Positions 18,392 to 19,277 of a stretch of 36,948 nucleotides of DNA are shown one piece after another. The notes beneath the pieces were generated by a model that was given only the letters and a program-made list of their open reading frames with translations, was not told where the DNA came from and searched no databases. A program made the position numbers and the translations under genes. The DNA comes from a virus. The DNA is taken from positions 1 through 36,948 of IMG/VR virus record IMGVR_UViG_3300021961_000273; one strand, 5' to 3'. The stretch's first letter is position 1. Every line of letters begins with the position of its first letter.

Positions 18392-18703
18392 ATGAAAAAG
18401 TATAAGACTGAAGATTACTTCTCCGTAATTGAAACAAAGACTGGTAGAAAGATTTGCGACTGTGGTATTGAGCAAGATGCTCTTGCCATGGTCGCTTTTG
18501 ATCCACAAAATAGAACGATTACTAGAAACCAATTCTTAGCTGGTCAGGTTATTGATGTTGAAATGCCAAAAGCACTTCCCACTACCAATATTGTACCTTC
18601 TGCTCCTAAGGAATATCTTGACTCAATGTACCCCGAGATTCCAGAAGATACTGTTGAACCGTTGGTTCTCCCTGAAAGTCAGTTACAACCCTTAAATTTG
18701 TAA
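18392..18703 (+). CDS. Conserved cyanophage hypothetical protein (103 aa)
   Basis: 103 residues. The N-terminal half (MKKYKTEDYFSVIETKTGRK-type start, then CDCGIEQDALAMVAFDP) looks like a small alpha/beta domain; the C-terminal half is Pro/Glu-rich and probably extended. No catalytic motif is visible. It starts 15 bases after the third head-protein gene, so it may share that late transcript. Its stop codon lies inside the NtcA-type palindrome at 18697-18716, marking the border to the next unit. Confidence 0.65.
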   Translation: MKKYKTEDYFSVIETKTGRKICDCGIEQDALAMVAFDPQNRTITRNQFLAGQVIDVEMPKALPTTNIVPSAPKEYLDSMYPEIPEDTVEPLVLPESQLQPLNL

Positions 18704-18716
18704 CTCAAGTTACAAA
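18697..18716 (+). promoter_or_regulatory. NtcA-type operator palindrome
   Basis: A perfect palindrome with 8-base arms: TTTGTAAC, spacer TCAA, GTTACAAA. Its core is GTA-N8-TAC, the consensus of NtcA, the cyanobacterial 2-oxoglutarate-responsive nitrogen regulator. It is centred near -50 relative to the promoter at 18722-18750, about one helical turn further upstream than the classical -41.5. Confidence 0.6.
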
Positions 18717-18721
18717 ACTAC

Positions 18722-18750
18722 TTGACTATATACTGTTAGTAGACTATAAT
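18722..18750 (+). promoter_or_regulatory. Sigma-70 promoter (TTGACT-17-TATAAT)
   Basis: TTGACT (18722-18727) and a perfect TATAAT (18745-18750) are separated by 17 bases. Transcription would begin near 18757, exactly at the 5' edge of the riboswitch-like RNA. As a host-type early promoter it contrasts with the late elements around it. Confidence 0.9.
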
Positions 18751-18757
18751 AGTCTTG

Positions 18758-18822
18758 TCGTTCATTCGCTATTTTCGAACAGCGAACGCAAGTAAGCCGA
18801 CTCGGAACGGATCGTTCATCTA
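18758..18822 (+). promoter_or_regulatory. Downstream-peptide/glnA-type glutamine riboswitch
   Basis: The order matches the glutamine-binding aptamer: P1 5' strand CGTTC plus A (18759-18764), stem TTCGCT/AGCGAA (18765-18770, 18781-18786), CGCAAGTAAG (18787-18796) like the conserved CGGAAGTAGG, and P1 3' strand GAACG (18805-18809). Downstream, GAACG can instead pair with CGTTC at 18813-18817, and GTTC/GAAC (18814-18817, 18825-18828) encloses the ATG at 18822, giving an expression platform. Such RNAs occur in cyanobacteria and cyanophages before short ORFs, as here. Assigned from memory of the consensus. Confidence 0.7.
18786..18812 (+). repeat. Aptamer 3' half, copy 1 of imperfect repeat
   Basis: The 3' half of the riboswitch (ACGCAAGTAAGCCGACT then GGAACGGAT) recurs at 18961-18988 as ACGCAAAAGCCGACT then GGAACGGGAT, with a 2-base deletion and small insertions. 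Confidence 0.5.
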
Positions 18823-18977
18823 TGGAACAGATTTTCTTAACCTGCTTACAGGCACAACTACTAATTAGTAGAGTCAACGCCAGTACTTTAATTATAGATC
18901 ATCAAAAAAATGATCTCGTGTGGGAAGTTAAGCAAGTTACAAAGAAAGGTTGTTTCACAGACGCAAAAGCCGACTGA
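18822..18977 (+). CDS. Riboswitch-controlled microprotein (51 aa)
   Basis: 51 residues from ATG 18822, the first ORF after the riboswitch and in its expected position. The N-terminus is M-E-Q-I-F-L-T-C-LQAQLLISRVN, the middle contains NDLVWEVKQVT, and the C-terminus is KKGCFTDAKAD. It looks like a small helical/beta soluble protein with two Cys. No catalytic or membrane feature. Short ORFs in this location define the Downstream-peptide RNA class; their function is unknown. Glutamine control suggests a nitrogen-related task in the infected host. Confidence 0.7.
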   Translation: MEQIFLTCLQAQLLISRVNASTLIIDHQKNDLVWEVKQVTKKGCFTDAKAD

Positions 18978-18988
18978 AGGAACGGGAT
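18961..18988 (+). repeat. Aptamer 3' half-like sequence, copy 2
   Basis: Imperfect copy of 18786-18812 covering the last codons and stop of the microprotein gene and 32 bases before the DUF4278-like gene. It lacks a convincing P1 5' strand (GTTTCA at 18954-18959 is the closest), so it may be a relic or chance. Confidence 0.4.
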
Positions 18989-19019: not shown

Positions 19020-19166
19020 ATGTCTAAAGTCGTTTATCGTGGTCATGAGTACGATACCGAACATCACAATGCTGAGGTTCTTGCCGAAGCAAAACGTGTT
19101 CGTGAGCAGGAAAACTTTTCCCTTATGTATCGTGGCGTTAAAGTCACTCGTACATTAGTAAAATGA
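19020..19166 (+). CDS. DUF4278-like microprotein (48 aa)
   Basis: 48 residues preceded by an AGGAG ribosome site 7 bases before ATG 19020. The N-terminus MSKVVYRGHEYDTE and the C-terminal LMYRGVKVTR give the two YRG-V/H motifs typical of DUF4278, a small family of cyanobacteria and their phages. The helix between them is Ala/Glu/Arg-rich. Second in the glutamine-riboswitch operon; its stop overlaps the next ATG (ATGA). Function unknown. Confidence 0.7.
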   Translation: MSKVVYRGHEYDTEHHNAEVLAEAKRVREQENFSLMYRGVKVTRTLVK

Positions 19167-19249: not shown

Positions 19250-19252
19250 TTG

Positions 19253-19277
19253 AGAGGGGTTAAACACCCCTCTTTTT
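19253..19277 (+). terminator. Rho-independent terminator of the riboswitch operon
   Basis: AGAGGGGT (19253-19260) pairs with ACCCCTCT (19266-19273) around a TAAAC loop, followed by a TTTTT run to 19277. It closes the unit from the promoter at 18722. Confidence 0.9.

What the first reader, a model, noticed from the sequence alone, without database searches (positions are those of the whole stretch)
18697..18750. NtcA-type palindrome upstream of the riboswitch promoter
The 20-bp perfect palindrome contains GTA-N8-TAC, the NtcA consensus, 31 bases upstream of TATAAT. NtcA senses 2-oxoglutarate, the riboswitch glutamine: the same transcript would read both ends of the nitrogen signal. NtcA sites have been proposed in T4-like cyanophages; combination with a glutamine RNA on one promoter is the unusual part. 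The centre near -50 is about a helical turn from the normal -41.5.
Basis: partly seen in the sequence, partly recalled or inferred. Interest (0 to 1): 0.75.

Follow-up and report, generated by a model that had tools for sequence, protein, structure and literature searches.

The report
Nitrogen-regulator site on cyanophage riboswitch promoter
Viruses of ocean cyanobacteria place what looks like a docking site for the host's nitrogen regulator at a fixed distance from their own late-type promoter, in front of an RNA that senses glutamine, so one transcript may read two nitrogen signals.

Summary
The palindrome is real and more than chance, although not quite "perfect" (18 of 20 positions). Among 102 non-redundant cyanophage glutamine-riboswitch promoters, fetched by the aptamer and not by the palindrome, GTA-N8-TAC is the commonest of 1,600 possible 3+3 palindromes (72 of 102; 66 of 102 at the expected place). 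Its inner bases and flanks match host glnA sites and the published NtcA ChIP consensus. Eight phage genomes searched carry no CRP-type helix-turn-helix.

It lies 13 bp from a TANATA element in 57 of 67 sites, while its distance to the -35 and to TATAAT shifts. TANATA resembles the cyanophage late -10 (NATAAATA) and lies 5-7 nt before most aptamers of a second class. TATAAT lies inside a hairpin whose arms vary together.

My reading: host NtcA works with a late-type phage promoter from about -32. Activation is favoured; repression, as at pirA and gifB, is the main rival. NtcA plus a glutamine riboswitch is already known for host gifB; new are the phage version, its geometry and its confinement to this transcript. 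No binding was tested.

The parts
18392..18703 (+). upstream ORF (103 aa, no Pfam match); its stop codon lies in the palindrome
18697..18716 (+). inverted repeat TTTGTAACT-CA-AGTTACAAA with NtcA-type GTA-N8-TAC at 18700-18713
   Evidence: conserved in relatives
18722..18727 (+). sigma-70 -35 TTGACT, overlapping the next element by one base
18727..18732 (+). TANATA element (TATATA), late-promoter-like, 13 bp from TAC
   Evidence: phasing; class S
18741..18755 (+). hairpin AGACTA-TAA-TAGTCT that contains the -10; would be at the 5' end of a late-type transcript
18745..18750 (+). sigma-70 -10 TATAAT, 17 bp from the -35
18757..18813 (+). first glutamine aptamer (RF01739, below gathering score)
18813..18984 (+). 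second glutamine-type aptamer: CGTTCA at 18813, CGACTGAAGGAACG at 18971-18984; long loop
   Evidence: no Rfam hit in the window itself; S-PM2 shows two RF01739 matches in tandem
18822..18977 (+). 51-aa ORF nested in the second aptamer; its stop codon is part of the conserved aptamer strand
19020..19166 (+). 48-aa DUF4278 downstream peptide
   Evidence: E 3.4e-4, below the Pfam cut-off
19252..19274 (+). intrinsic terminator-like hairpin closing the unit

Best explanation
The palindrome is a binding site for the host's NtcA (a CRP-family regulator activated by 2-oxoglutarate). With TATATA 13 bp downstream it forms a composite promoter: TATATA is a weakened phage late -10 read by host RNA polymerase carrying the phage sigma gp55, and NtcA, centred near -32, strengthens it. 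The transcript begins with a short hairpin, probably protective, and then tandem glutamine aptamers, so 2-oxoglutarate would act at initiation and glutamine in the leader. In promoters of this type (class H), an overlapping sigma-70 promoter (TTGACT-17-TATAAT) gives early transcription. Shown: the conserved site, the 13-bp phasing, confinement to aptamer transcripts, the covarying hairpin, the association with non-consensus TANATA, and no CRP-type HTH in 8 phages. Inferred: NtcA binding, gp55 use, and activation rather than repression.
For: GTA-N8-TAC in 72 of 102, rank 1 of 1,600 palindromes. Inner and flanking bases (TGTATCA; AAAA after TAC; A/T flanks) match host glnA sites, where 14 of 15 have the half-site TGATACA, and the NtcA ChIP consensus (T, C at positions 4, 5; A/T at flanking positions; PMC3898017 section 10). 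Inner positions 5/8 and 6/7 (counted from 0) do not covary as a hairpin would; 4/9 pairs somewhat more than shuffles. Gap to TANATA 13 in 57 of 67, also in three sites that have lost the -35 (L071, L096, L120), and 13 in 40 of 46 class S promoters when 11-15 was allowed. TANATA lies 4-7 nt before the aptamer in 50 of 76 class S promoters sampled without regard to the palindrome (0-6 in other 4-nt windows). The palindrome goes with non-TAAATA: class S 5 of 6 against 3 of 58 (p 4e-5), class H 47 of 62 against 16 of 34 (p 0.007). Of 118 composites selected by promoter, 115 precede CGTTCA and 2 a CGTTCG aptamer. No CRP-type HTH in 8 phage records; present in 3 of 3 hosts.
Against: No binding or transcription data. 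-32 is not an NtcA activation position that I know of; host glnA sites lie 22-23 bp from TAN3T and the published norm is -41.5. NtcA at -33.5 is read as repression at pirA. The gp55 reading rests on resemblance to NATAAATA. 36 of 102 class H and 63 of 76 class S aptamer promoters have no exact site in place, so it is dispensable. P-values ignore shared ancestry; class S has only 8 palindrome-bearing cases with TANATA. L012 breaks the 13-bp rule (gap 8) and so does S-SRM01.
Confidence: 0.45

Rival explanations
1. NtcA binds but represses. At about -32 of the late-type start and about -50 of the sigma-70 start it blocks polymerase when 2-oxoglutarate is high; glutamine then opens the riboswitch, so the peptide is made only under nitrogen sufficiency, as with gifB and pirA.
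For: pirA sites at -33.5 and -48.5 are read as repressive, with gifA/gifB sites in a similar position (PMC8092223, passages). gifB joins NtcA repression with a glutamine riboswitch. Both RNA motifs are linked to lower expression on nitrogen depletion (PMC2864571, passages).
Against: Strict 13-bp phasing and the link with non-consensus TANATA are not needed for steric repression.
Confidence: 0.27
2. The site binds another host CRP-family protein, or a phage factor of another fold, that prefers GTA-N8-TAC.
For: Three host genomes hold several HTH_Crp_2 hits each, some weak.
Against: Match to host glnA NtcA sites and to the NtcA ChIP consensus; no CRP-type HTH in 8 phages.
Confidence: 0.12
3. One reading: NtcA activates the TTGACT/TATAAT promoter, one turn upstream of the usual place.
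For: Gap TAC to -10 is 31 in 47 of 67 sites.
Against: The gap is 25-26 in 10 sites, half a turn off, while TANATA stays at 13. Class S has the palindrome without this promoter. A near-consensus -35 is present.
Confidence: 0.08
4. The palindrome acts as an RNA or DNA hairpin (terminator of the upstream gene) or is inherited without function.
For: It overlaps the upstream stop codon; arms of 9 bp; positions 4/9 pair more than shuffles (33 against 26.6 of 66).
Against: Inner positions 5/8 and 6/7 do not pair above shuffles; no T run; exact GTA/TAC kept while the rest diverges.
Confidence: 0.05

Closest known systems
Synechocystis gifB (IF17): NtcA repression plus glutamine riboswitch
   Same: one transcript under NtcA and a glutamine aptamer
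   Different: cellular gene; here in phages, with the site phased to a TANATA element and another product
Synechocystis pirA
   Same: small protein gene with NtcA sites near -33 and -48, close to the two offsets here
   Different: the two offsets here are one site seen from two promoters; pirA is reported absent from marine picocyanobacteria
Canonical NtcA-activated (class II) promoter, e.g. marine glnA
   Same: GTA-N8-TAC with TGATACA half-site and AAAA after TAC
   Different: 22-23 bp to TAN3T in glnA; 31 (or 25-26) here, and 13 to TANATA
T4-type late promoter (NATAAATA in S-PM2, PMC2984593 passages)
   Same: [AC]TANATA about 6 nt before the RNA, no -35 needed in class S
   Different: TATATA rather than TAAATA, and an upstream palindrome
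NtcA sites proposed in T4-like cyanophages (PMC3037559, passages)
   Same: same consensus, same class of phages; S-PM2 (AJ630128) is among the genomes listed there
   Different: that work listed GTA-N8-TAC matches by scan; I saw no riboswitch or late-promoter phasing in the passages read

Membership tests
NtcA binding site | GTA-N8-TAC core | tested here: met
   conserved
NtcA binding site | extended consensus (T, C at positions 4 and 5; A/T flanks) | tested here: met
   aligned set against PMC3898017; the window itself has A at 4 and C at 5
NtcA binding site | 2-oxoglutarate-stimulated binding by NtcA | not testable with these tools
   needs a binding assay
NtcA-activated class II promoter | site 22-23 bp from TAN3T, centre near -41.5, no -35 needed | tested here: not met
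   gaps 25-40, mostly 31, none 22-23 (search range 20-45); the host glnA control gives 22 in 13 and 23 in 2 of 15
NtcA-repressed promoter (gifB/pirA type) | site overlapping or abutting the core promoter | tested here: met
   13 bp from TATATA; position only, repression not tested
T4-type late promoter | NATAAATA-like -10 shortly before the RNA start | tested here: inconclusive
   TATATA in the window; relatives have TAAATA/TATATA/TACATA/TAGATA; no start mapped
Glutamine riboswitch (RF01739) | match at the curated score | tested here: not met
   29.3 bits, cut-off 35, E 3.7e-4
Glutamine riboswitch (RF01739) | P1 strands, conserved core and hairpin as in the family alignment | tested here: met
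   alignment
Glutamine riboswitch (RF01739) | glutamine binding | not testable with these tools
   in-line probing needed

The most novel reading that the evidence does not exclude
Host NtcA serves as a co-activator of the phage late RNA polymerase: bound near -32, in the place that sigma region 4 or the -35 element would use, it makes up for a weak late -10, so that late expression of the glutamine-riboswitch transcripts is licensed by 2-oxoglutarate while the leader reads glutamine.
Probability: 0.3. Interest if true: 0.85.

Novelty: new variant of a known kind. Interest (0 to 1): 0.66.

Why it matters
It would show that T4-like cyanophages read the host's nitrogen state twice on one transcript, once by a host transcription factor and once by RNA. 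It turns the general 2010 proposal of NtcA use by cyanophages into a single, nearly unique, testable promoter per genome, present in cultured phages such as S-PM2, P-TIM68, P-HM2 and Bellamy. It also raises the question of whether a CRP-family protein can work with a gp55-type late polymerase.

Tried and rejected
Rfam at gathering scores found nothing in the window; the aptamer shows only at a relaxed threshold. Counting GTA-N8-TAC genome-wide was uninformative: forward counts 69, 57, 81, 44 against reversed controls 61, 86, 99, 71 in four phages. The idea that the palindrome belongs to all TTGACTAWATA promoters was rejected: 0 of 51 new promoters counted as non-aptamer have it, though many of these are not cyanophages and one of the 51 (L387) looks on reading like a degenerate aptamer. 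The idea that palindrome presence depends on -35 quality found no trend. The idea that it was borrowed from the host downstream-peptide gene was rejected: host DUF4278-type riboswitch promoters show no GTA-N8-TAC in the 80 nt read (loci with the aptamer on the minus strand were read by eye). GTAGC-N4-GCTAC just before six host aptamers looked like a second NtcA position; in phages the same motif sits after TATAAATA as a hairpin, so I do not count it as NtcA evidence. A first regex for host aptamers matched nothing. A first host glnA pass missed reversed loci and was redone (15 of 30 loci have a site). A search for a cyanophage start-site map gave nothing usable.

Rows dropped before counts: L001 (same as window), L016 (chance match), L022 and L094 (no CGTTCA), five with under 110 nt upstream; 5 hits; 37 non-aptamer solutions.

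Full report
What was reported. The sequence at 18697-18716 is TTTGTAACTCAAGTTACAAA; GTA-N8-TAC is at 18700-18713. The arms are 9+9 bp, the two central bases do not pair, and the stop codon of the upstream ORF lies inside. TTGACT (18722-18727) and TATAAT (18745-18750) have a 17-bp spacer. The RNA matches RF01739 at 29.3 bits, under the curated 35, E 3.7e-4. Downstream come a second aptamer-like unit, a 48-aa DUF4278 peptide and a terminator-like hairpin. The window is a 36,948-base virus record with ThyX, PhoH and gp32 homologues, and its matches are to T4-like cyanophages.

Is it more than chance? GTA-N8-TAC alone is not. I therefore collected promoters by the aptamer only (capped sample) plus five phage loci and the window: 126 core matches, of which 95 have CGTTCA close by, 29 have it farther upstream and 2 have none. 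After dropping a chance match and short flanks, 118 remained, 102 of them below 75% identity to each other. Over 64 triplets and 25 spacings, GTA-N8-TAC is the commonest palindrome (72 of 102; 87 of 118). The runner-up, TGT-N10-ACA, is its outer extension. At 48-66 nt before the aptamer it is exact in 66 of 102 and one mismatch off in 11. The five phage loci were BLAST hits to a stretch that includes the palindrome, so they are not independent of it; they are 5 of the 102. Of 15 records read by name (window, DSL-LC03, S-PM2, AG-345-L05, S-SCSM1, Bellamy, S-SRM01, P-SSM2, P-HM2, P-SSM3, P-SSM4, P-RSM6, P-TIM68, S-SSM4, DSL-LC02), 10 have it 12-14 bp from TANATA (P-HM2 gap 12). S-SRM01 has one at a different gap. 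P-SSM2, P-SSM3, P-SSM4 and P-RSM6 lack it there. These 15 were picked from BLAST hits and are not a random sample.

Is it an NtcA site? The consensus of exact sites is aaAAttGTATCA-N-A-N-WTTACAaaa. Marine host glnA promoters, found as a control in 15 of 30 loci, read GTAC-N3-TTGATACAAAAC; the gap from TAC to TAN3T is 22 in 13 and 23 in 2, which reproduces the -41.5 rule and shows that the method finds true NtcA promoters. The ChIP consensus in PMC3898017 (section 10 read) has T and C at positions 4 and 5 and A/T at flanking positions, as here. Inner positions 5/8 and 6/7 do not covary, as they would in a hairpin; 4/9 pairs somewhat more often than shuffles (33 against 26.6 of 66). HTH_Crp_2 was absent in 8 of 8 phage records and present in 3 of 3 host genomes. 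Binding itself was not tested.

What does it work with? In 47 of 67 sites the gap from TAC to the -10 is 31, but in 10 it is 25-26, half a helical turn off. The gap to TANATA is 13 in 57 of 67 and 12-14 in 62; its spread is 0.68 bp against 1.86 for TTG and 2.04 for the aptamer. L010, L027 and L086 move TTG and keep 13; L071, L096 and L120 have no TTG and keep 13. DSL-LC02 has palindrome-13-TATATA-6-aptamer with no TATAAT or hairpin. A scan for such short forms (class S) found 99 stretches; 70 solutions had an aptamer, 46 of them distinct, with the gap 13 in 40 although 11-15 was allowed, and TAWATA 5-7 nt from CGTTCA in 45 of 46.

What is TANATA? In S-PM2, late structural genes carry TAAATA preceded by A or C upstream, for instance gp23, gp18, gp20 and gp8 (gp19, gp21, gp53 and gp48 showed none in 90 nt), in line with the published NATAAATA (PMC2984593, passages). 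In a sample of another aptamer type taken without regard to the palindrome (76 non-redundant), TANATA lies 4-7 nt before the aptamer in 50, against 0-6 in twelve other windows, and the base before it is always A or C. Most of these (63 of 76) have no exact palindrome, so the late-type element does not need it. Where the palindrome occurs, TANATA is more often not TAAATA: class S 5 of 6 against 3 of 58, p 4e-5; class H 47 of 62 against 16 of 34, p 0.007. That is what an activator compensating for a weak core would look like, with the caution that ancestry is not modelled and class S has only 8 such cases.

The TATAAT. In the long form (class H, the window's) the -10 sits in an inverted repeat that ends within 6 nt of the aptamer: stems of at least 5 bp in 92 of 102, against a mean of 12.5 (largest 16) in dinucleotide shuffles, with 44 different 5' arms. 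Such variation points to an RNA hairpin, which can form only in transcripts that start upstream, as from TANATA. The -35/-10 pair still looks like a real early promoter, because its 17-bp spacing is kept in 84 of 102. Overlapping early and late promoters have been proposed as a middle mode in cyanophages (PMC2984593, passages).

Specificity. TGTA-N8-TAC-N7-9-TTGACTAWATA in viral contigs precedes CGTTCA in 115 of 118 cases with enough sequence, and a CGTTCG aptamer in 2 more (two were cut). In five phage records GTA-N8-TAC-N12-14-TANATA occurs once at the riboswitch in each, with 2 other places in all. TTGACTAWATA-TATAAT promoters counted as without an aptamer have no palindrome (0 of 51).

Sign of regulation. 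For activation: strict phasing and the weak core. For repression: pirA, with sites at -33.5 and -48.5 (PMC8092223, passages), and gifB, which joins NtcA repression and a glutamine riboswitch (PMC7760959, passages). Repression would also give the simpler logic, since both inputs then mean nitrogen sufficiency. I lean to activation at 0.45 against 0.27, because phasing is the harder fact to explain otherwise.

Known and new. Glutamine riboswitches in T4-like cyanophages are in print (PMC9964418 and PMC9602691, passages), and so are scanned NtcA sites (PMC3037559, passages). I did not find the combination in cyanophages, or the phasing, in searches. These cover open-licence PMC only; the gifB riboswitch paper itself is not held.

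Noticed in passing
window 18813-18984; loci L002-L126: A 49-66 aa ORF is nested in the loop of the second glutamine aptamer in nearly all of the 58 (of 92) loci where that loop is 100 nt or longer; in most of them its stop codon lies in the conserved aptamer strand GAC-TGA-AGGAACG, so the aptamer codes for ...DAKAD or ...DAND. In 28 of 28 other loci the first aptamer holds such an ORF of 61-75 aa.
   Followed up: partly
window 18741-18755 and relatives: A covarying hairpin encloses the -10 of the early promoter (92 of 102 promoters, 44 arm types); two functions on the same bases.
   Followed up: yes
L683-L794: A second class of phage glutamine aptamers (glnA type) often sits directly behind terminator-like or tRNA-like sequence with [AC]TAAATA 5-8 nt upstream: late-type riboswitch transcripts mostly without the palindrome.
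   Followed up: partly
L305, L306, L307, L314, L321, L323; P-SSM3/P-SSM4 (L458, L459): GTAGC-N4-GCTAC lies just before the glutamine aptamer in six host loci and two phages; in viral contigs 22 of 120 such motifs precede an aptamer, often after TATAAATA. Hairpin or operator is unclear.
   Followed up: partly
L309, L310, L320, L322, L326, L327, L333: Host riboswitch promoters, DUF4278-type peptide genes at least in part, show a TGTTC-N5-GAACA-like palindrome and no NtcA site in 80 nt.
   Followed up: no
window 19252-19274: Terminator-like hairpin after the 48-aa peptide suggests a self-contained riboswitch unit ahead of thyX and phoH.
   Followed up: no
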